Source of the DNA: a virus
Reading direction: 5' to 3' (one strand)
IMG/VR virus record: IMGVR_UViG_3300022925_000122
Span: 1 to 29,740 of that record
Length of the DNA: 29,740 nucleotides
The position numbers and the translations under genes are program-made. Of the stretch, positions 10,655-22,019 are shown in pieces; positions within the stretch are counted from its first letter, which is position 1, and the number at the start of each line of letters is the position of its first letter. The notes under the pieces are model-generated. The model saw only the letters and a list, made by a program, of their open reading frames with translations, ran no database searches and was not told the DNA's origin.

Positions 10655-11206
10655 TCAGCTATCAGGGTATCTATGGTCGTCACCCGCATCACCAGTAATG
10701 CTGCTAGAAGCAACAAAGGTTTCAGACTTAACTCGGAAGTTTCCGTGGGCATCAACATATGTTGTAACACCAACCCAACCAGAGTGTGCTACTGCATACT
10801 TGGTAGCGGTTGCAATGCCAGCTTCAGTATTATCTACACCGAATACACCAGTGAAGAGATTACTGGTTGAGAATCCAGTTGTCTTGGCTTCTGGTGCCTT
10901 ATAGTGTGAGTCACCGAGAACAACATAAATTGGTTCTTGCGAAATATTATATGTTGTGGCGGTTACTGTTGCAATCCCCTGGAATCCTTCTGTCGATGCA
11001 ATCGACATAGCACCAGCAGAATCCACTGAAGCGATGGCAGCGTATCCAAAAGTTACGCCAGCACCAACCGAAATTATATTGCCAGTCGAAATACCAGCAG
11101 TGTTAAAGGTTGCACTAGTTCCTACTCTCTCAACCTTTTTCGTAGTAAGATTGACGGTAATTGTCCCGTCAGAATACACCGAATCGTTATTGCCCCAAAG
11201 AGCCAT
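10655..11206 (-). CDS. Probable virion structural protein (MALWG family)
   Basis: This 183-residue protein (MALWGNNDSVYSDGTITVNLTTKKVERVGTS...) is rich in Gly, Ser, Thr, Ala and Val with alternating beta-strand patterning. This is typical of small cyanophage virion proteins that begin MALWGN. There is no signal peptide and no Cys. A perfect TATAAATA late promoter lies 31 bases upstream, supporting late expression. The precise virion location is unknown. Confidence 0.82.
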   Translation of the reverse strand: MALWGNNDSVYSDGTITVNLTTKKVERVGTSATFNTAGISTGNIISVGAGVTFGYAAIASVDSAGAMSIASTEGFQGIATVTATTYNISQEPIYVVLGDSHYKAPEAKTTGFSTSNLFTGVFGVDNTEAGIATATKYAVAHSGWVGVTTYVDAHGNFRVKSETFVASSSITGDAGDDHRYPDS

Positions 11207-11472: not shown

Positions 11473-11676
11473 TTATATAGACTCTAAGAATTCTTTTAAT
11501 GATTTCTTCTTATCTGGAAGATTTTTATGCTTAGTTGACGCAAATTTCTTTACGTCGGATTTGGACATGGAGGAAGCAGCTTGGGAAACCTCAGGCGACG
11601 GGGAATCCATTTCCCCTTTTTGAGCCGCTCTAACCATCCCGAAGAATCTTTGTTGCGCTTTGGAGACTGCTGGCAT
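11473..11676 (-). CDS. DUF3008-like small protein
   Basis: This 67-residue protein has the sequence pattern of the DUF3008 family: MPAVSKAQQRFFGMVRAAQ at the start, PSPEVSQAASSMSKSDVKKFASTKHKNLP in the middle, and a helical LKEFLESI end. Family members are common in phages and some bacteria without known function. The gene has a very strong ribosome-binding site (AAGGAGGAGGA) immediately before the ATG, suggesting abundant product. Co-location with virion-type genes suggests a head or packaging association, but that is inference. Confidence 0.85.
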   Translation of the reverse strand: MPAVSKAQQRFFGMVRAAQKGEMDSPSPEVSQAASSMSKSDVKKFASTKHKNLPDKKKSLKEFLESI

Positions 11677-11689
11677 TCCTCCTCCTCCT

Positions 11690-13141
11690 TCACTTTACAG
11701 AATCTTTACCGTACTTTGCACGCACCTGACTCTTTACGATATCAACTGCAGATTTACCCTGCATTTGTTTCTGAACAGCAGTCTTTCCAGGTTTGATACC
11801 AAGTTCAGCATTGCTTAGTTTTCTACCAGCAGAGCGCTTATTGGCATCCATACCACCACGCATTTGACGTTCGTCTCTTGCAGTATCTGATGCTTCTTCA
11901 TCTACAGTCTTTCTGCGACCACCACTTGTAGGTTGATCGTGTTGAATGGGTCTACCAGTCTTTTTCTTGGCAACAGCTCTCTTAGAACCATCAGGATTGA
12001 TAAAGTCTGAAGGATAGGTTGCTTCAGTCATCTCACCTTCCATATCATAAGACATCTTAAGTCCCATTGCCCTCAACTTATTTCTTGCCAGATTCATTTT
12101 CGTGGGAACTTCTCTTGAATCTACAACTTTGTCATGATCTTTAGTGTCATGATCTCCATCACACTTTTCACATGCTTCATTGTAATTCAAAGGAAGTTTA
12201 CCTTGCTTTTGCATCTGCAGTGCCTGCTTCTGCATCATAATTTTTCTTTTGAGCATCTTGTCCTTATTGGCAAGTTGTCTTTTTTCTTCTGGTGTAGGAC
12301 CTGCTGCTGCTTTTGCTGCCTCTTGCTCCTCAAGTCTTTGTGCCGATAAAGCAGCAAGTTCTGCCTTAATTGATTCTCCAAGGGAAGGATTAACCTTGAC
12401 AGTATTCTTGCCCTTCATTATATCAATTCTCTTTTCATTAGCATCAGGATTATCATTTTCAGTGTTTACTTCACCAATGAACTCTTCATTACGAGTATCC
12501 TGTCCATCGGGAGTTCCACCTTTCTTTTTCTGAATCGCATTATGAACTACACCAGCATGTTCCTTAGAACCACTCTCAACTTTACCGTCACCATCATAAT
12601 CCTTAGAAGCTTTCTTGCCCTTGCTACCAGTCTTATCGTAGGTGTCAGATTCTTTTCTTCCAGTTATTTCAACAGAAGAAATATTTGGATTGCCTCTTAA
12701 TTCCGAAATCTTAGCGCGATCTGCCTTTCTATAATAAGTTCTCTTTGTTTTCTTATCAGTAACTCTAATCGTATACTTAGTATCAGCAGCCTCTTCTATT
12801 TCCTCTACTTTTTGTCCGCCACCTTCTACAAATACTTTAGCAAAAACATCAGAAGTTGAAGACTTGATATTCTCTTCAATGTCAAACACATCATACTCTT
12901 CACCAATGAGCATCTTCTTGGCAAGTGCCTTGACAGGTCCAGGTGCAGATGATGAGCCTAACTGTTGCATATACGCACGCTTCAGAGAAGCAGGATCAGC
13001 TTTCTGCCCATCCTTAAACTTCTGCTTTACCTTATAACGTGTGTCATAAGCAAGTTGTCTAGCAGCTTTTCTTACCTTATCTGTAGCAGCGGCACCGCCT
13101 TGTTGAGGTTGGGGTGCCTCCTCAAATACTTTATCGCTCAT
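11690..13141 (-). CDS. Probable virion protein with EF-hand-like loop
   Basis: This 483-residue, highly charged, low-hydrophobicity protein contains a calcium-type loop (DYDGDGKVES at 181-190) of the form D-x-D-G-D-G. It also has a Cys pair followed by an acidic/His cluster (CEKCDGDHDTKDHD, ~324-337), a Gln/Met/Lys-rich helix (~297-315) and a basic C-terminus. The loop motif and composition are common in uncharacterised cyanophage structural proteins. Two late promoter boxes sit in the 3' end of the upstream gene, 32-36 bases before this ATG, supporting late expression. No strong ribosome-binding site is seen. It may be a scaffold or internal head protein. Confidence 0.8.
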   Translation of the reverse strand: MSDKVFEEAPQPQQGGAAATDKVRKAARQLAYDTRYKVKQKFKDGQKADPASLKRAYMQQLGSSSAPGPVKALAKKMLIGEEYDVFDIEENIKSSTSDVFAKVFVEGGGQKVEEIEEAADTKYTIRVTDKKTKRTYYRKADRAKISELRGNPNISSVEITGRKESDTYDKTGSKGKKASKDYDGDGKVESGSKEHAGVVHNAIQKKKGGTPDGQDTRNEEFIGEVNTENDNPDANEKRIDIMKGKNTVKVNPSLGESIKAELAALSAQRLEEQEAAKAAAGPTPEEKRQLANKDKMLKRKIMMQKQALQMQKQGKLPLNYNEACEKCDGDHDTKDHDKVVDSREVPTKMNLARNKLRAMGLKMSYDMEGEMTEATYPSDFINPDGSKRAVAKKKTGRPIQHDQPTSGGRRKTVDEEASDTARDERQMRGGMDANKRSAGRKLSNAELGIKPGKTAVQKQMQGKSAVDIVKSQVRAKYGKDSVK

Positions 13142-13159: not shown

Positions 13160-14404
13160 TTACTTTTTCTTATATTTATTTATAAATTGCTTACCCCATT
13201 CTGAACCTGGAACTAATTTCTCAACATACTTCCTATGAGCATCGGTTCCAACAAGTCTTTGCTCTGGTGGAACACCCGATGGAGCATTGCTATTGGTGAC
13301 TTCTTCATTCACATCTTTAATCCAAGACTTGAACATAATCTTATCTTCCGTGACACAAATAAGATAGTTGGTTCCTCTGCGAATAATCTTACCGATCAAT
13401 CCAGTATTCAAGTTTTCTACCAGTTGTCCAACGTTGAAGATGTTGCCATTGACATAGTTTTCACGAAGTCCAATGAAGTCAAGTTTTGGAGCAATCTCCC
13501 AAAGGTTCCAACCTTCCTTGATATTCATTGCCGCACGAACTTGATTATAAAGTTCCTTGGCATCTTTATCAGACAAATCTTTAGGAAGGAAAGATCTAAA
13601 ACTTTCAAAATCTCCCTCTGCGGCAAAGCGTCGTTGAGATGATGCTTCTGCTCTTTCTACTTTAGTCTTAGATTTTGTGTCTCTCTTTCCAGCCTCAACA
13701 ACTTCTATATTATCGAACTGATAGAGTTTTCCATTATAATCAGTGGTGAGTTTTTGAAAATCTGGAACCCTATCAGCACCACCATAGATTTTTACATTCG
13801 TATATCCATCCATGTGTGCTTTCTTCAGCACATCAAAAATGGTTCTGTTCTGAGCATCATTTATAATCTTTTCACTGTGTTGCGGGAACATCTTTCTTAG
13901 GAAAGATGTTTTAGTATCAGCATCCAGAGGATTCTTTTTCTTATCCTGAGTTCTGGACGGAACAATAATATAGTCACCATCTTCAGAACCAGAAGCTGCC
14001 ATATCCATCAACTTCTGATGTCCGATATGTGGAGGATTGAATCTACCAAATCCAATTGTCAGTGTTCCTTTAGTTTTTTCAACTTCAGGAGGAACCATTG
14101 GTGGTTTCTCTGCTGCTGATTTCTGTTGTTGTACTGGTGCTTGCTGTTGTGGAGCAGGTTCTTGTTGTGGTGCTGGTGCCGATGATGGTGCAGAAAGATT
14201 CTTCTCCTTATCAGTCTGTGGAGGATCTTGCTTACCTACTCTTTGGCGCTTGTTATAGAACTTCAGTCTTCCCTTTTCTGTCTTAGCGACGAACTCACCA
14301 GTCTTACGATCGAACCATCCACCATGTCCGTCTCCCTCCAACCCAAGGCGTGCCGCCTGCTGAGTTGCAGTAGTCTCAGATAAAAATTGGAAGAAATTCT
14401 TCAT
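13160..14404 (-). CDS. HIGH-motif nucleotidyltransferase with capsid-targeting-like N-terminus
   Basis: This 414-residue protein has several parts. Residues 1-10 (MKNFFQFLSE) resemble the T4 capsid-targeting sequence MKTYQEFIAEA and end in an L-x-E site of the type cut by prohead protease. Residues 13-50 form a basic conserved-looking module. Residues 60-110 form a Pro/Gln linker. A nucleotidyltransferase domain follows with GRFNPPHIGH at 120-129, a second motif SRTQDKKKNPL, and ASSQRRFAAEGDFESFRSFLP near 255-273, in the place of the ISSTxxR motif. A ~110-residue C-terminal domain of unknown type ends the protein. The family transfers nucleotidyl groups, for example to NMN or phosphopantetheine; the substrate here is unknown. 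It starts in TAATG and lies in the late-type island. Confidence 0.88.
   Translation of the reverse strand: MKNFFQFLSETTATQQAARLGLEGDGHGGWFDRKTGEFVAKTEKGRLKFYNKRQRVGKQDPPQTDKEKNLSAPSSAPAPQQEPAPQQQAPVQQQKSAAEKPPMVPPEVEKTKGTLTIGFGRFNPPHIGHQKLMDMAASGSEDGDYIIVPSRTQDKKKNPLDADTKTSFLRKMFPQHSEKIINDAQNRTIFDVLKKAHMDGYTNVKIYGGADRVPDFQKLTTDYNGKLYQFDNIEVVEAGKRDTKSKTKVERAEASSQRRFAAEGDFESFRSFLPKDLSDKDAKELYNQVRAAMNIKEGWNLWEIAPKLDFIGLRENYVNGNIFNVGQLVENLNTGLIGKIIRRGTNYLICVTEDKIMFKSWIKDVNEEVTNSNAPSGVPPEQRLVGTDAHRKYVEKLVPGSEWGKQFINKYKKK
13173..13184 (-). promoter_or_regulatory. Double late promoter TATAAATAAATA
   Basis: Overlapping TATAAATA and AATAAATA boxes on the minus strand are encoded by the last codons (FINKYK) of the nucleotidyltransferase gene. 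They lie 32-36 bases before the EF-hand-loop protein ATG. Confidence 0.65.
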
Positions 14405-14628
14405 TACTTACTCAGTTTTTTAATTATAGATTTTTCGTTTGCAACAATATACTTGAGGACTTCTACCCTCATTTTCTTATATTTATTCATCATTCGATCT
14501 GTCCTACACATAGTAATCTGTTTATCAAAGACATGATAGACATGAGCAAGAAACTCATTATACCTGCCTCTGGTTATTTTTGTGCTTGTTTCAAAGGACT
14601 GTATCAATTCATCAATTTGTGGGTTCAT
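14404..14628 (-). CDS. Small basic helical protein
   Basis: This 74-residue protein (MNPQIDELIQSFETSTKITRGRYNEFLAHVYHVF...) appears to be entirely helical and is basic in its C-terminal half. It is coupled upstream by ATGA and downstream by TAATG to the two larger genes. An AATAAATA late-promoter-like box is encoded by its MNKYK segment. No family is recognised. Confidence 0.75.
   Translation of the reverse strand: MNPQIDELIQSFETSTKITRGRYNEFLAHVYHVFDKQITMCRTDRMMNKYKKMRVEVLKYIVANEKSIIKKLSK
14480..14487 (-). promoter_or_regulatory. Late-promoter-like AATAAATA within small gene
   Basis: This matches NATAAATA on the minus strand, 76 bases before the nucleotidyltransferase ATG. It lies wholly inside coding sequence, so it could serve that gene or be a by-product of Asn-Lys-Tyr codons. 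Confidence 0.3.
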
Positions 14629-15746
14629 ACTTGAAAAAATCCGTCTCCAGCTTCCATTAATTGTCTAAGCATAATCTTATATGTCTTGTTTGTCCCACTA
14701 CCACTCGACGCAGAATCAATTCTTGCTCTAAATTGTAGTAAGAGTTTTCCCTTTTCCCCATTAGATCTATCAACTAAGAAAAGTTTAATGGTTGGATTAT
14801 CATCTACCGATGTCTCAACCATAAACTTTTGTCTTGCCAGTGAATTTTTAAATGAAGCATCAAACGTTTGAACAGCAAAACTTCCTCCACCTTTAAGTTT
14901 TAAGAGTATAACTCCATCTTCGTTTCTAGTGGCTCCAAACTTAATTGCTTCATACAAGTTTTCAGCGAATTCTGGTTGTCCTTTTATTCTATTGATTGCT
15001 TTTGCAGCAGCTTTATAATATACTGTCGCACACTGTTTTAAAAGATCAGCCTCATCACTTTCAGTCACATCTTTTCTTCCTGGAAATTTTATAGAGAATG
15101 CTTGAGTGGCATTAAACTCATTAATCATTCCATTACATTTATTTTTAGCAACTTGACTAACATTAAGTCCCAGCAAATCTTTGAAGAGTTTATCAAATTT
15201 ATCAACACCAAATCCAACAACCTGAGCAAACTGCTCCCCACCAGTAACTTTTAAAGATATTTGATTTCTAGTTTGTTTTCCATTAACTGTAATCTTAATA
15301 TCAACCTTAGTTCCTTTTTGATCTGCAGTTCCTGCCGAATCTACAACAATGTTATCAACTTTCCCATTTTGAGCAAAAAATTGAGATTGAAGCGCCAGTC
15401 TTCTATCCTGATTTACATATCTAATTGCACTAGTAATGAAATCAGAAACATCATCTCTATTACTTTTTACTCTCAAAAAATCCATGGCATTTTGAGGAAG
15501 AGCCAATTTAAATGTTATATTATCCTCAACTTGTTTCGTTATCACTCTCAAATCTTTTACTGTTCTTGTTATAGAACCAGTAGTCAATACGTCATCCAAC
15601 AAATCATCAATATCTTTTCTATTAACAGCATCCAAAGTTCTAGATGTTTGTCCCTTTATTCTTTTGGCATATCTGGCAGCGACCGCAGCTCCAACAAATG
15701 CCTCAGCAACATCCCCTTTGTTGGCACTAATTTTTTTATTTGCCAT
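14625..15746 (-). CDS. Unknown protein, possible PD-(D/E)XK-type fold
   Basis: I start this 373-residue protein at ATG 15746 (MANKKISANKGDVAEAF), because a longer in-frame start would run through the tRNA gene. An N-terminal helix with a conserved-looking Glu (KGDVAEAF, E15), a strand with D149 (KVDIKITVNG) and QISLKVTGGEQFAQV at 162-176 together resemble the E, D and xxK arrangement of PD-(D/E)XK nucleases with K166. This assignment is tentative because the residue before the Lys is hydrophobic and the usual acidic/polar residue is replaced by Ser164. The C-terminal half is beta-rich. Related proteins occur in cyanophages. A TCTAAATA box lies just upstream. Role unknown. Confidence 0.8.
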   Translation of the reverse strand: MANKKISANKGDVAEAFVGAAVAARYAKRIKGQTSRTLDAVNRKDIDDLLDDVLTTGSITRTVKDLRVITKQVEDNITFKLALPQNAMDFLRVKSNRDDVSDFITSAIRYVNQDRRLALQSQFFAQNGKVDNIVVDSAGTADQKGTKVDIKITVNGKQTRNQISLKVTGGEQFAQVVGFGVDKFDKLFKDLLGLNVSQVAKNKCNGMINEFNATQAFSIKFPGRKDVTESDEADLLKQCATVYYKAAAKAINRIKGQPEFAENLYEAIKFGATRNEDGVILLKLKGGGSFAVQTFDASFKNSLARQKFMVETSVDDNPTIKLFLVDRSNGEKGKLLLQFRARIDSASSGSGTNKTYKIMLRQLMEAGDGFFQV

Positions 15747-15769
15747 CAGACTTTTATTTTTATTTAGAA

Positions 15770-15843
15770 TGGAGAATAGGAGACTCGAACTCCTGACATT
15801 TTGCTTGCAAAGCAAACGCTACTACCAACTGAGCTAATTCCCC
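15770..15843 (-). tRNA. tRNA-Ala (anticodon UGC)
   Basis: A 74-base cloverleaf starts GGGGAATTAGCTCAGTTGG. It has the anticodon arm TTTGC-TTTGCAA-GCAAA with anticodon TGC, and the T-arm GGAGTTCGAGTCTCC. The acceptor stem GGGGAAT/ATTCTCC contains the G3-U70 pair that defines alanine identity, and the discriminator base is A. CCA is not encoded. It lies between the small MazG-containing block and the late-type island. A sigma70-like promoter and a UUCG-loop hairpin lie directly upstream. It reads GCA codons, likely supplementing the host pool. Confidence 0.95.
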
Positions 15844-18390: not shown

Positions 18391-19384
18391 AAGAGAATTC
18401 AGTATTTGCAATTTGATCTAGTTTCTCCATAATGTCAGGAGTGAAGTACTGCTCGGGATCTTTAAGTATTGCTTTGGCATAGACCTTCTTTCCGTTGATT
18501 TCATATCGACCTGCGACATTTTTCCAAAGTCCGCCAATCTCACCGAGTTCAAGAAGACCGTAATAACGATCAAGACCACGCTCATCGTAATACAAACGCA
18601 CCGTAACATCTTGGTTCTCCTTGCTTAAACGCGACTTAGCAGTCTTTGCCTTGATAAGGTTTCCGACAACATCTGTTCCGTCTTTTTCTTTTTTCTTGCT
18701 GAGATGGATGATAGTAGAAGCAGCATACTTAAGACCAGAACCGCCTCCCATCTCTTTTGTAGGAACATAAGCGCCAATGACATCGTAGGTGTGGTTGGTA
18801 ACAATCATAGGAATGTTAGCCTGCCCCAGTTTAAGTGTCAACATCCTGAACGCACCTTTAATCAGTTGTGATTTTGTCATATCACGAACTTGTTTGTCGT
18901 TGAGTGCGTCAGTAATCTCCTTCTCTGTGGAAAGCATACCCAGAGAGTCTAACACAAACATGCAGGGTTTGCGTTCGTCTTCAGGTTTTTTTAAGTAAAT
19001 GTCTACTGCCTTGAGTGCCTTGCTACGGAACTCCTCAACGGTAACAACATTGACTACTACCAAACGAGAGGTGTCAATAGCCCTAGACTCAAGTAGGGAC
19101 TTAGTGATAGCTGCCTCAGTATCAAAATAGAGACAATAGCCATCGGGATTGGTATCGAGAAAATTCTTAACAACGGCGAGGCTGAAGAAAGTCTTTCCAG
19201 TAGAAGACTCTCCAGCAATAGCAGTAATCTTATTCCCAGATACACCACCAAATAAACTACCTGAACACAGTCCATTAAGAATGTACGAACCCGTGTCAAC
19301 AAAACTTTCATTTTCATCTATATCTGAAGCGAGTTTGGTAAAGTCATCACCAATCTCTTTTACAATATCTTTGAGGAAATCCAT
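18377..19384 (-). CDS. uvsX: UvsX RecA-like recombinase
   Basis: This 335-residue strand-exchange protein is the T4-type RecA homologue needed for recombination-dependent replication and repair. Walker A is GESSTGKT at 58-65, Walker B-like is MFVLDSLGML at 142-151, and the DNA-binding loop region includes KEMGGGSGLKYAASTIIHL. The length is shorter than T4 UvsX (about 390), as in cyanophages. It starts in TAATG overlap with the gp43 C-half. A sigma70-like promoter inside that gene about 90 bases upstream could give independent early expression. Confidence 0.97.
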   Translation of the reverse strand: MDFLKDIVKEIGDDFTKLASDIDENESFVDTGSYILNGLCSGSLFGGVSGNKITAIAGESSTGKTFFSLAVVKNFLDTNPDGYCLYFDTEAAITKSLLESRAIDTSRLVVVNVVTVEEFRSKALKAVDIYLKKPEDERKPCMFVLDSLGMLSTEKEITDALNDKQVRDMTKSQLIKGAFRMLTLKLGQANIPMIVTNHTYDVIGAYVPTKEMGGGSGLKYAASTIIHLSKKKEKDGTDVVGNLIKAKTAKSRLSKENQDVTVRLYYDERGLDRYYGLLELGEIGGLWKNVAGRYEINGKKVYAKAILKDPEQYFTPDIMEKLDQIANTEFSYGTN

Positions 19385-20550
19385 TATCCAAAAAATAGTT
19401 CAAGGTTTACTGTTTTTTCAACATTCCATCCAATCGAATCGAGAATGGATTTGAGAGGTTCTACAAAACTTTTCTCAAATTGTAATTCATAATCAATGTA
19501 CTTGTCAAGTCCAAGTTCCGTAGGAAAATCCTGAATGAAGGAGATTACATTCTCCTGAATAATGTTTGGTTTCTTCAGATAAATGAACTTAATTTTTTCA
19601 CCATTATTAATAAGTGAATACTTGTTATCAAGTTTTTTCTCCTTAATATAGTGATTAAAGAGAAGTGCTCCACGACAATGAATGGGAGTTCCCTTTACAT
19701 AGATGTCTGAGTGGGAACGGTATTTTACCACATCTGAAACTGATCTGGGGAAAGCAATTTCCTCTGGAGAAAGTGATTTGAATTTGGTTCTACAATCATC
19801 AATGAACTCAATAACTTCTTCCTCAGTTCCATTCATCATCAACTTGAGTCCATCCTTAATCATCTGACGACAGGGAGCAGGTGTAGAAGATTTAACTGCT
19901 TCAATTCCCATCATCTTTAGTTTAGGATCGTCATACCGAACTCCTTCACTATCCCATACGTTGAGAATATATCGCTTCTTCGCGGTCCAGATACCACGTT
20001 CAGCAATATTCTCACGCTTCATTTGCATTTTCTGATCATACGCCGATACATAATCCGCAAGTTCTTGATATGAACGTTCAATAAAAGGTTCCAGTTTCTC
20101 TTGGCAGATCTTGTCAAGTATCCCCACAACTGCTGTTTTGTCGCCAGACTTAGCACTAAAAAATTTAGTAACAAGAGGTCCGAGATTAAGATAAATCGAA
20201 TCAGTGTCAGATGCGATGACATAATCTTCGCCTTCTGTTTTTAAAAGATTATTTAGATATCCGTTCATTTTATTCTCAATCCAGCGGATTGATACCTGAC
20301 CAGATAACGTAATCGCTTCCGCGTTGGCAAGCTTGTAATACCTGAAATACTGATTGCCAATAGCACCGTAAGCACTGTTAAGTTGAATCTTACGCGCCAT
20401 CTGGATGTTATTACATCTAGAAATTTCTTTCTCAGCATTAGTTCGCATCCTCCACAATTCATTGTCAGAGAGTTTCGCATACTTACTATTGCCAGAGACA
20501 ACAACTTCTTCCTGGTGTTCTTCTTTATTACCACCAATAAGATAACCCAT
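19384..20550 (-). CDS. 43B: DNA polymerase gp43, C-terminal half (fingers/palm/thumb)
   Basis: This 388-residue half of the family B replicative polymerase carries motif B (KIQLNSAYGAIGN at 54-66), catalytic motif C (SDTDSIY, D115 and D117), KAKKRYILNVWD, and the thumb. It ends in LELFFG, equivalent to the T4 gp43 tail LDFLFG that docks on the sliding clamp. It lacks exonuclease and motif A, which are in the gene immediately upstream. Its ATG overlaps that stop as TAATG and has AAGAGG about ten bases upstream, encoded in the end of the N-half. The two chains must assemble to give an active enzyme. Confidence 0.95.
   Translation of the reverse strand: MGYLIGGNKEEHQEEVVVSGNSKYAKLSDNELWRMRTNAEKEISRCNNIQMARKIQLNSAYGAIGNQYFRYYKLANAEAITLSGQVSIRWIENKMNGYLNNLLKTEGEDYVIASDTDSIYLNLGPLVTKFFSAKSGDKTAVVGILDKICQEKLEPFIERSYQELADYVSAYDQKMQMKRENIAERGIWTAKKRYILNVWDSEGVRYDDPKLKMMGIEAVKSSTPAPCRQMIKDGLKLMMNGTEEEVIEFIDDCRTKFKSLSPEEIAFPRSVSDVVKYRSHSDIYVKGTPIHCRGALLFNHYIKEKKLDNKYSLINNGEKIKFIYLKKPNIIQENVISFIQDFPTELGLDKYIDYELQFEKSFVEPLKSILDSIGWNVEKTVNLELFFG
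19479..19508 (-). promoter_or_regulatory. Sigma70-like promoter for uvsX inside gp43 C-half
   Basis: TTGACA and TACAAT are separated by 18 bases on the minus strand, encoded within LDKYIDYELQ near the polymerase C-terminus. They lie about 100 bases before the uvsX ATG. Confidence 0.5.
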
Positions 20551-22019
20551 TACAAAATGCCTCTTCGCTTCATTTCCTCTTCAATATCAACTAACTGCTG
20601 CTTAGCAGAAAGCATTTTTTTCTTAAAGACTGTTCTATCCTTATAAATCTTCTCCATCAATTCTGGCAGAAATCCACGGACATCTTTACGATACATGGCA
20701 CCATTAGCACATACCGCATTGTCTTTATACATCTCAAATGTCAGTTCCTCATTAAGTATCTTATCAACTGTTGCTGATGGGTGCCTGGTATCCCTGAGCG
20801 TTTCTGGTGAGATATTATACTGCATGATAAGGTGAGGATACAGACTGTTGAGGTCAAAAGACACAACCCAATCATACTTTCCAGGAATCGGTTCCTTGAC
20901 ATACGCCCCCGCATACTTAGAGTCTTTATCAGAACGTTCTTTAGGAGGAATAACAATATTCCTTTTCTTCAAATAGTTATAAATGATAGTATCCCACATG
21001 CGGACTTGTGAGAACACATCAGTATAGTTTACCTTAGCGTCATATGCCATGGTAATCGCAAGTTCAATCAGTTTCATCTTGTCTTCCATACGGTCGACAA
21101 GTTCCACGTCAATGATGTTGTATTCTACAAACTTCTGCCAACCCTTTGTATAAAAGTCCTTGAATGTATCGTACTCAGAGTGATCGAGTTTCTTCTGCCC
21201 AAGTTCTACACTAGCAATATAATCCAGGCGATAGGATTCTTGTGCTTTGTATGTGAACTTCTTATAGAGATTGAGATAGTCTAACTGGCTGACACCACCA
21301 ACATCGTAGGAAATATGTTTACGTCCAACAATGTAAGTTTCTTTCTCAGTCACAAGTCCCCAGGGAGAAAGACGCTTCATCAACTTCTCACCAAGGATTC
21401 TTTCAATCCTACGAACAAGATAAGGAATATCATACAGTTCACTATTCCAACCAGTGATAACTTCGGGAGTATTTTCCTCAATCATCCACCAGTCTATGAA
21501 ACTGCTCAGAAGTTCATACTCAGTTCTGAAACCTTTGTAGATAACATTCTCTTGCTTGTTCTTGAAAGGTCCACGTCCCCAGGTACGAATCTGCTTTGTT
21601 GCATAATCCTGGATAGTAATTAGTAGAACTTCCTCAGCGGCAGATTCCACATCAGGGAATCCGTTTTCAGAAGCAACCTCAATATCAAGTGTGGTAATCT
21701 TTACTTTAGTTGTATCAAACTTGATTTCCTCTTCCTTATACATCTCAGAGATGTACTGATAGATGTATCCAGTGTTGCCATGAACTTTGAAGTTTTCTAC
21801 ACCATCATACTTTTTGATGAACTCACGACAATCACGAACTGAACCAGGTTTAATTGGTTCGACATGTTCTCCACTGAGAGTTTGATATTTTGTTTTTTTA
21901 TTTGATGGAACAAAAAGAGTTGGATTAAACGTTTCACGAGTCATGAAATGTTTACCGTTCTCATAACCACGTACCAAAAAGTGATTTCCAACCATTTGGA
22001 CGTTTGTATAAAATCGCAT
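20550..22019 (-). CDS. 43A: DNA polymerase gp43, N-terminal half (exonuclease/palm A)
   Basis: This 489-residue half contains the N-terminal domain and the 3'-5' exonuclease: LDIEVAS with D112/E114, GWNSELYDIPY with D197, and YNIIDVELVDRM with D304. The first palm segment with motif A is FDLNSLYPHLIMQYNISPET (D389). It ends within the fingers after FLPELMEKIYKDRTVFKKKML. Together the halves give 877 residues against 898 for T4 gp43, so little or nothing is lost. The exonuclease residues are intact, so proofreading should be kept. The start overlaps the stop of the second Sm-like gene as TAATG. Confidence 0.95.
   Translation of the reverse strand: MRFYTNVQMVGNHFLVRGYENGKHFMTRETFNPTLFVPSNKKTKYQTLSGEHVEPIKPGSVRDCREFIKKYDGVENFKVHGNTGYIYQYISEMYKEEEIKFDTTKVKITTLDIEVASENGFPDVESAAEEVLLITIQDYATKQIRTWGRGPFKNKQENVIYKGFRTEYELLSSFIDWWMIEENTPEVITGWNSELYDIPYLVRRIERILGEKLMKRLSPWGLVTEKETYIVGRKHISYDVGGVSQLDYLNLYKKFTYKAQESYRLDYIASVELGQKKLDHSEYDTFKDFYTKGWQKFVEYNIIDVELVDRMEDKMKLIELAITMAYDAKVNYTDVFSQVRMWDTIIYNYLKKRNIVIPPKERSDKDSKYAGAYVKEPIPGKYDWVVSFDLNSLYPHLIMQYNISPETLRDTRHPSATVDKILNEELTFEMYKDNAVCANGAMYRKDVRGFLPELMEKIYKDRTVFKKKMLSAKQQLVDIEEEMKRRGIL

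What the first reader, a model, noticed from the sequence alone, without database searches (positions are those of the whole stretch)
13160..14404. Nucleotidyltransferase probably packaged into the head
The N-terminus MKNFFQFLSE closely follows the T4 capsid-targeting sequence MKTYQEFIAEA and ends in an L-x-E site for the prohead protease. Behind it lies a HIGH-motif nucleotidyltransferase with GRFNPPHIGH and a likely ISSTxxR-equivalent segment. The gene lies in a late-type island. If packaged, an enzyme acting on NMN or a similar nucleotide precursor would be injected with the DNA and could affect host NAD metabolism or an NAD-based defence at time zero.
Basis: inference. Interest (0 to 1): 0.7.

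Follow-up and report, generated by a model that had tools for sequence, protein, structure and literature searches.

The report
Enzyme tagged for phage-head packaging
A virus of ocean cyanobacteria carries an enzyme whose first ten amino acids look like the address tag phage T4 uses to load proteins into its head, and unrelated enzymes of related viruses bear the same tag, which suggests a shared kit of enzymes delivered together with the viral DNA.

Summary
In detail: a 414-aa protein on the minus strand (14404..13160) begins MKNFFQFLSE|T, followed by a HIGH-type nucleotidyltransferase domain. The tag matches T4's capsid-targeting sequence (CTS) at the residues reported as critical (4, 7, 8, 10). 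These positions are kept in nearly all of 78 orthologues, and its end, FLSE, equals the presumed capsid-protein processing site of close relatives. Virion presence of this family is already published; all four virion-detected orthologues whose sequence I checked carry the tag, and the S-PM2 orthologue, reported as undetected in virions, does not. In seven complete phage genomes the tag marks 18 open frames, against a mean of 0.11 for permuted controls; in T4 it picks ipII, ipIII and gp61.1. In cyanophages it also marks a SAM-lyase-type enzyme, kinases, small proteins and, internally, an annotated Cas9-like nuclease. A second ~36-aa module links transferase, kinases and nuclease. I conclude: a late-made, CTS-targeted, probably ejected adenylyltransferase-like enzyme, one of a cyanophage set of packaged enzymes. 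My open-access searches found no paper on CTSs in cyanophages. Cleavage, ejection and substrate are untested; the NAD link is only a lean.

The parts
13160..14404 (-). whole gene: CTS-tagged HIGH-type nucleotidyltransferase, 414 aa (T4-GC 190 / PHROG 395 family)
14375..14404 (-). capsid-targeting-like tag MKNFFQFLSE, residues 1-10; predicted cut after E10
14249..14374 (-). residues 11-52, shared module (LGLEGDGHGGWFDRKTGEFVAKTEKGRLKF) also found in packaged kinases and a nuclease
14072..14248 (-). residues 53-111, linker rich in P, Q and E, mostly of low model confidence
13529..14071 (-). residues 112-292, nucleotidyltransferase core
14018..14047 (-). GRFNPPHIGH motif, residues 120-129
13631..13642 (-). 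SSQR (residues 255-258), ISSTxxR-equivalent segment
13304..13468 (-). residues 313-367, C-terminal beta-rich module that also occurs alone or on other cyanophage proteins (phrog_4808)
14480..14487 (-). AATAAATA, conserved late-promoter-like element 82 nt before the start codon, inside the preceding frame
13177..13184 (-). TATAAATA, late-promoter-like element 36 nt before the next gene
   Evidence: 26 of 77 loci have it within 60 nt of the transferase stop
11690..13141 (-). next gene, 483 aa, unknown; 30% identical to P-SSM2_195, which sits in the same place
11473..11676 (-). 67-aa protein, 72% identical to S-SCSM1 gp279, labelled virion protein
10655..11206 (-). 183-aa protein, 44% identical to S-SCSM1 gp277, labelled tail fiber protein (virion protein)

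Best explanation
A T4-like cyanophage makes a HIGH-superfamily adenylyltransferase-like enzyme late in infection. Its first ten residues act as a T4-type capsid-targeting sequence: they bring the protein into the prohead core, the phage's gp21-type prohead protease removes them after E10, and the mature enzyme (from Thr11) stays in the head and is ejected with the DNA, so it can act before any phage gene is expressed. It belongs to a set of CTS-tagged enzymes and small proteins in cyanomyoviruses; several, this one included, also carry a shared ~36-aa module behind the tag. Shown here: motif, register, conservation, enrichment, shared module, fold class, intact catalytic motifs. Published for orthologues: presence in virion preparations. 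Inferred: cleavage, ejection, catalytic activity, substrate.
For: Register with T4 ipII/ipIII at the residues reported for targeting (4, 7) and processing (8, 10). Conservation in 78 orthologues: K2 78, F4 76, F7 78, L/F/I8 77, E10 76. 18 tagged frames in seven genomes against 0.11 (maximum 2) in 300 permuted controls; reversed DNA pattern 0 in 9 records. S-CREM2: tag on 4 to 6 of 52 virion proteins and 0 to 1 of 167 others, depending on the rule. Virion-detected orthologues of S-SM1, S-SCSM1, S-SZBM1 and S-CREM2 all tagged; S-PM2's, reported undetected, untagged. The gp23 of seven phages carries [FIL]LxE|A at the matching place. Module shared with kinases and nuclease. Late-promoter-like element in 74 of 77 loci. 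PF01467 above cut-off and PPAT/NadD/NMNAT fold.
Against: No virion data exist for this phage, and the window is a fragment without gp21, gp22 or gp23. Peptide counts for orthologues are low (3 in S-CREM2, 2 in S-SZBM1), and the S-CREM2 and S-SCSM1 authors warn of co-purification. No cleaved N-terminus has been seen. S-CREM1's NMNAT is not mentioned among its 14 detected proteins, and the tagged 105-aa protein of S-SZBM1 is not in its virion table. S-PM2's negative comes from another laboratory and method. Residue 8 is F in 16 of 78 orthologues, a departure from the T4 L/I at that position. Some S-CREM2 rules were tuned after a first look.
Confidence: 0.8

Rival explanations
1. The enzyme is abundant late in infection and merely co-purifies with virions; it works only in the infected cell, and the N-terminal motif has another role or none.
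For: Authors' own caution; low peptide counts; tag-less forms exist in S-PM2, S-RSM4 and S-RIM44, so the enzyme can serve without packaging.
Against: Four separate proteomes found it, all with tagged forms; the tag is shared by unrelated virion enzymes and its end equals the gp23 site.
Confidence: 0.12
2. It is packaged as above and its reaction is NMN or NaMN adenylylation, so that injection raises NAD or counters NAD-depleting defence.
For: Best NCBIfam hits are NMN/NaMN adenylyltransferases (nadR 4.9e-6, TIGR00482 2.5e-4; PPAT only 0.013). Tag-less relatives carry AISGTKMR, which I recall as close to the NMNAT form of the motif. The S-SCSM1 authors proposed NMNAT.
Against: Scores lie far below curated cut-offs (26 against 341 bits). 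PPAT structures rank first by VIA-align, with NadD and NMNAT close behind. No NAD-pathway gene was identified among the window proteins searched.
Confidence: 0.4
3. The transferase fold has lost catalysis and serves as a structural or DNA-binding head protein.
For: Fused to disordered linker and two non-catalytic modules; virion location of orthologues.
Against: Catalytic positions G120, R121, H129, S255 and R258 are invariant in 39 sequences, and similar motifs stay intact in tag-less and jumbo-phage homologues.
Confidence: 0.08

Closest known systems
T4 internal proteins ipII/ipIII (ipI) and their capsid-targeting sequence
   Same: Ten-residue N-terminal tag in the same register with the same key residues, predicted cut after E10, late-made head cargo.
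   Different: Cargo is a 400-residue enzyme rather than a small basic protein; a second shared module follows the tag; found in cyanophages, which are reported to lack alt, modA and modB (PMC2984593, passage).
Cyanophage T4-GC 190 'cytidyltransferase' / S-SCSM1 NMNAT (PHROG 395)
   Same: Same family, same gene position, published virion presence of members.
   Different: The published passages I read name no import signal or processing site; S-PM2, S-RSM4 and S-RIM44 members lack the tag.
NMN/NaMN adenylyltransferases and PPAT (HIGH superfamily)
   Same: Fold, (H/T)xGH motif, SxxR segment.
   Different: Low sequence identity (12-19% in structural alignments), extra N- and C-terminal modules, substrate unknown.
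SPN3US and phiKZ-type head propeptides
   Same: Head proteins with N-terminal propeptides removed after Glu by a gp21-related protease (PMC5694885, passages).
   Different: Propeptides there are mostly over 100 residues with an AxE site; here ten residues with LxE, as in T4.

Membership tests
T4-type CTS cargo | N-terminal tag with aromatic 4, F7, aliphatic 8, E10 in register | tested here: met
T4-type CTS cargo | Removal of the tag by the prohead protease | not testable with these tools
   only site identity with gp23 of relatives
T4-type CTS cargo | Presence inside the head of this phage | not testable with these tools
   orthologues reported in virions
T4-type CTS cargo | Phage has gp21 protease and gp22 scaffold | tested here: inconclusive
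   window is a fragment without them; S-CREM2 is annotated with both
T4-type CTS cargo | Ejection with the DNA | not testable with these tools
   none
HIGH nucleotidyltransferase superfamily (PF01467) | Pfam score above cut-off | tested here: met
   33.2 against 21 bits
HIGH nucleotidyltransferase superfamily (PF01467) | (H/T)xGH and SxxR catalytic segments | tested here: met
HIGH nucleotidyltransferase superfamily (PF01467) | Nucleotidyl transfer activity | not testable with these tools
   none
NMN/NaMN adenylyltransferase (NadR, NadD, NadM) | Curated NCBIfam cut-off | tested here: not met
   best 26 bits against 341; so not filed as NMNAT
NMN/NaMN adenylyltransferase (NadR, NadD, NadM) | Closest fold among solved structures | tested here: inconclusive
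   PPAT, NadD and NMNAT nearly tied
Cyanophage T4-GC 190 / PHROG 395 | Sequence orthology and position between mazG/gp41 and gp61/nrdA | tested here: met
   PHROG 395 3.6e-97; same position in P-SSM2 and S-SM1

The most novel reading that the evidence does not exclude
Cyanomyoviruses, which are reported to lack T4's Alt and Mod enzymes, use the T4 address tag plus a shared second module as a cargo code and load the head with an exchangeable set of counter-host enzymes (SAM-lyase-type enzyme, protein kinases, Cas9/HNH-like nuclease, GNAT-like protein and this adenylyltransferase), so that the incoming DNA is defended at time zero; this transferase would rebuild NAD or modify a defence nucleotide before the host can respond.
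Probability: 0.22. Interest if true: 0.85.

Novelty: new variant of a known kind. Interest (0 to 1): 0.64.

Why it matters
Proteomics papers found a 'cytidylyltransferase' or NMNAT, kinases, a SAM hydrolase and a nuclease in cyanophage virions and could not tell cargo from contamination. A ten-residue sequence rule with a known T4 mechanism could settle it and predicts, from sequence alone, which proteins marine T4-like phages inject. Because the S-PM2, S-RSM4 and S-RIM44 enzymes lack the tag, they are natural controls, and the value of pre-loading an enzyme becomes directly testable. It would also give a defined set of candidate counter-defence proteins acting at time zero in Synechococcus and Prochlorococcus.

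Tried and rejected
Chance match of the tag: rejected by permuted-position controls (0 of 300 reach 18) and reversed-pattern controls (0 in 9 records).

Plain orthologue conservation as the only reason for the N-terminal pattern: rejected, because unrelated proteins share it.

Real cytidylyltransferase: not supported; the NCBIfam leads are adenylyltransferases, but this is a lean, not a test. Profile search of the PDB with the 39-sequence alignment found nothing at E 0.1. PADLOC found nothing for P0001.

No late promoter: an exact TATAAATA is absent just upstream of the gene, but a conserved [AG]ATAAATA is there. It lies in coding sequence ([ND]-K-Y codons), so part of the conservation could be protein-level; codon use predicts about 0.37 for these exact codons (product of fractions) against 74 of 77 loci observed, but the loci are related.

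Led nowhere: a scan for relatives of the S-CREM2 kinase found no match; scans with the ACG-2014f nuclease and S-CREM2 gp154 gave one locus each. The paper on S-CRM01 is not held. Table S8 of Sullivan 2010 (supplement) was not read. The S-CBWM1 NMNAT, named as virion-detected in PMC10665884, was not examined for the tag.

Dropped rows: 2 of 80 orthologue loci were partial (L039, L047), leaving 78; one more lacked 200 nt upstream, leaving 77; 3 of the 78 are 100% identical to the window protein; 63 of 78 are unique over the first 150 aa, and 61 of these 63 have E10. In the SAM-lyase set 2 of 80 loci were partial; 45 of the remaining 78 match the strict tag, 33 do not. The start-codon scan used seven complete genomes; S-SM2 and ACG-2014f were searched only by DNA pattern, and ACG-2014f had no exact match there.

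Regex history: the first S-CREM2 regex gave 4 of 52 virion proteins and 1 of 167 others (gp175); a looser one added gp37 (not virion). Later ones, adjusted after seeing these data, gave 4, 5 and 6 of 52 against 0, 0 and 1 of 167. The regex was also chosen after seeing S-CREM2, S-CRM01 and window sequences.

Full report
1. What is there. The window is a 29,740-base IMG/VR virus record from a T4-like cyanophage: UvsX, DnaB-type helicase, split DNA polymerase, NrdA/NrdB, with best hits to Synechococcus and Prochlorococcus myoviruses. The finding is a 414-aa gene on the minus strand, 14404..13160. tblastn finds relatives in 534 phage records, mostly cyanophages: S-SKS1 72%, P-SSM2 62%.

2. The tag. 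The protein starts MKNFFQFLSE|T. T4 ipII and ipIII, translated from the T4 record, start MKTYQEFIAE|A; ipI deviates, MKTFKEFTST. A review of T4 head assembly states that residues 4 and 7 mainly govern targeting and 8 and 10 processing (PMC9026906, passage read). All four agree here. In 78 orthologues from metagenome viruses (2 of 80 loci were partial and dropped), K2 is kept in 78, F4 in 76, F7 in 78, L/F/I8 in 77 and E10 in 76, while positions 3, 9 and 11 vary most within the tag.

3. More than chance. Over all ATG-started frames of at least 50 aa in seven complete phage genomes (9,777 starts, summed from the call), ^M[KR].[FLYW]..F[LIMF].E finds 18; 300 versions with the same residue classes at other positions average 0.11 with a maximum of 2. 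In T4 it finds ipII, ipIII and gp61.1, a 54-aa hypothetical protein. A DNA version of the tag occurs in 8 of 9 phage records, the reversed pattern in none. In the window it marks only this gene.

4. Link to virions. For S-CREM2, whose virion proteome is tabulated with coordinates (PMC10665884, section with Table 3 read), all 219 coding sequences were translated. The tag is on the SAM hydrolase (MKDFDSFLEE), the APH/ChoK kinase (VKRFDAFLTE), the cytidylyltransferase (MKNFSSFLTE) and hypotheticals gp13 (MKDLHSFLTE) and gp136 (MQTFSMFFSE); the nuclease annotated as Cas9/Csn1 has it internally (LRFASFMAEA). Depending on the rule, 4, 5 or 6 of 52 virion proteins and 0, 0 or 1 of 167 others match (p 0.0029, 0.00065, 0.00081). 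The rules were tuned after a first look (4 of 52 and 1 of 167), so these p values are optimistic. I did not verify the nuclease annotation; Pfam found nothing in it.

5. The same enzyme in other virions. Sullivan et al. 2010 report the putative citidylyltransferase T4-GC190 in S-SM1 virions and list it among proteins encoded by S-PM2 but not detected in its virion (PMC3037559, passage). The NMNAT of S-SCSM1 (PMC9602691, passage), the cytidylyltransferase of S-SZBM1 (PMC9146016, Table 1; 2 peptides) and that of S-CREM2 (3 peptides) were also detected. N-termini: S-SM1 MKKFSAFLNE|A, S-SCSM1 MKSFLQFLKE|A, S-SZBM1 MRFRQFIIE|A (one residue shorter), S-CREM2 MKNFSSFLTE|A. S-PM2's orthologue has another N-terminal region without the tag. 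S-RSM4 and S-RIM44 start at the catalytic domain, and 5 of 5 jumbo-phage homologues examined have no tag. So tagged and detected: 4 of 4 examined; untagged and reported undetected: 1 of 1; methods differed between laboratories. Against this, S-CREM1's NMNAT gene is not mentioned among its 14 detected proteins, and the authors of the S-CREM2 and S-SCSM1 studies warn of co-purification.

6. Processing site. The major capsid protein gp23, found in all seven genomes, contains FLTE|A in T4, FLSE|A in S-SKS1 and P-SSM2, FLAE|A in S-SCSM1 and S-CRM01, LLTE|A in S-CREM2 and ILTE|A in S-SZBM1. That this is the gp23 cleavage site is recalled from T4 knowledge, not looked up. The window tag ends QFLSE|T.

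7. A second shared module. Directly behind the tag lies LGLEGDGHGGWFDRKTGEFVAKTEKGRLKF. A tblastn with the first 70 residues hits the transferases and also the S-CREM2 nuclease and a 980-aa ACG-2014f protein. A profile from 13 seeds finds, in 8,528 frames of seven genomes, seven proteins with E below 1e-7 and then nothing before E 1.2: three transferases, the S-CREM2 kinase (two copies) and nuclease, S-CRM01 g128 and S-CRM01 kinase g130. Only the S-SKS1 transferase and g130 were not seeds. By reading, all seven carry a tag-like stretch at or near the N-terminus.

8. Other tagged families. The N-terminal domain of the S-CREM2 SAM hydrolase matches PF23780 S-AdoMet_lyase (2.3e-19); 45 of 78 usable metagenome relatives (of 80 loci) start with the strict tag, for example MKTFKEFISEA, and 33 do not. 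S-CRM01 has a tagged 131-aa protein with GNAT matches just below the Pfam cut-off (23.6 against 27 bits). A family of about 105 aa is tagged in S-SKS1, S-SCSM1 and S-SZBM1 (the S-SCSM1 member is phrog_1742), but in S-SZBM1 no protein of that length is in the virion table.

9. Late expression and setting. ATAAATA is found within 200 nt before the start codon in 74 of 77 loci, at 79-88 nt in the 40 listed (background 0.10 per 200 nt on that strand). It overlaps [ND]-K-Y codons of the preceding frame; the codon fractions predict about 0.37 for these exact codons. That cyanophage late promoters read NATAAATA is recalled, not looked up. Window genes 11473-11676 and 10655-11206 match S-SCSM1 proteins labelled virion proteins.

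10. The enzyme. PF01467 is above its cut-off. GRFNPPHIGH and SxxR are intact; H129, S255 and R258 are invariant in 39 sequences. AlphaFold2 gives a confident core, residues about 112-292. Foldseek and VIA-align place it with PPAT, NadD and NMNAT without separating them (Z 13.8 to 12.0 for the 50 entries shown). NCBIfam leans to NMN/NaMN adenylyltransferases but far below cut-offs. I therefore call it adenylyltransferase-like, NAD being a possibility.

11. Literature. Searches pairing capsid targeting with Synechococcus, cyanophage, prohead protease, T4-like and marine, and related searches, listed no paper that I recognised as describing capsid-targeting sequences of cyanophages. Only open-access papers under certain licences are held, and most of those listed I judged from the listing.

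12. Verdict. Packaging of this family was known; the probable import signal, its processing site and its sharing by several cargo enzymes are what this adds. Cleavage, ejection and substrate remain to be shown.

Noticed in passing
T4 NC_000866 18966-19130 (L237 467-631, minus): T4 gp61.1, a 54-aa hypothetical protein, starts MKTFKEFIKED and fits the CTS rule, so it may be an unrecognised T4 head protein.
   Followed up: partly
window 19384-22019: The T4-type DNA polymerase gene is split into two abutting frames (489 and 388 aa), as annotated subunits A and B in S-CREM2, while S-SKS1 has one polymerase gene.
   Followed up: no
L087 6645-11812; L082 5245-10313: The tagged nuclease-like protein lies next to phage DNA adenine methylase genes in ACG-2014f and near one in S-CREM2, which suggests a packaged nuclease paired with self-protection.
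   Followed up: no
window 11473-11676 and 11690-13141: Both neighbours match parts of phrog_26015, whose far end matches the SAM-lyase domain: a fusion family linking these genes with the SAM-lyase-type enzyme.
   Followed up: no
window 11473-11676: The 67-aa protein ends in KKSLKEFLESI, and its S-SCSM1 relative in RTFKEFLEYIE: a tag-like stretch at the C-terminus instead of the N-terminus.
   Followed up: no
L086 15001-16232 (S-SKS1): The transferase gene of the closest isolate appears broken in its record: tblastn needs two pieces, the first open frame has 111 aa and no gene is annotated.
   Followed up: partly
window about 15769-15842, minus strand: A tRNA-like sequence with a TGC anticodon lies just before the gene 14625-15746, where S-SM2 and S-SCSM1 have an annotated tRNA-Ala; seen by eye, ARAGORN not run.
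   Followed up: no
L238 22296-23270 and relatives: In several cyanophages the gene before the transferase (T4-GC 71 in S-SM1 and S-PM2) carries KWDGAPA or KWDGAPS, a KxDG ligase-like motif by eye; I did not see it among the window genes.
   Followed up: no
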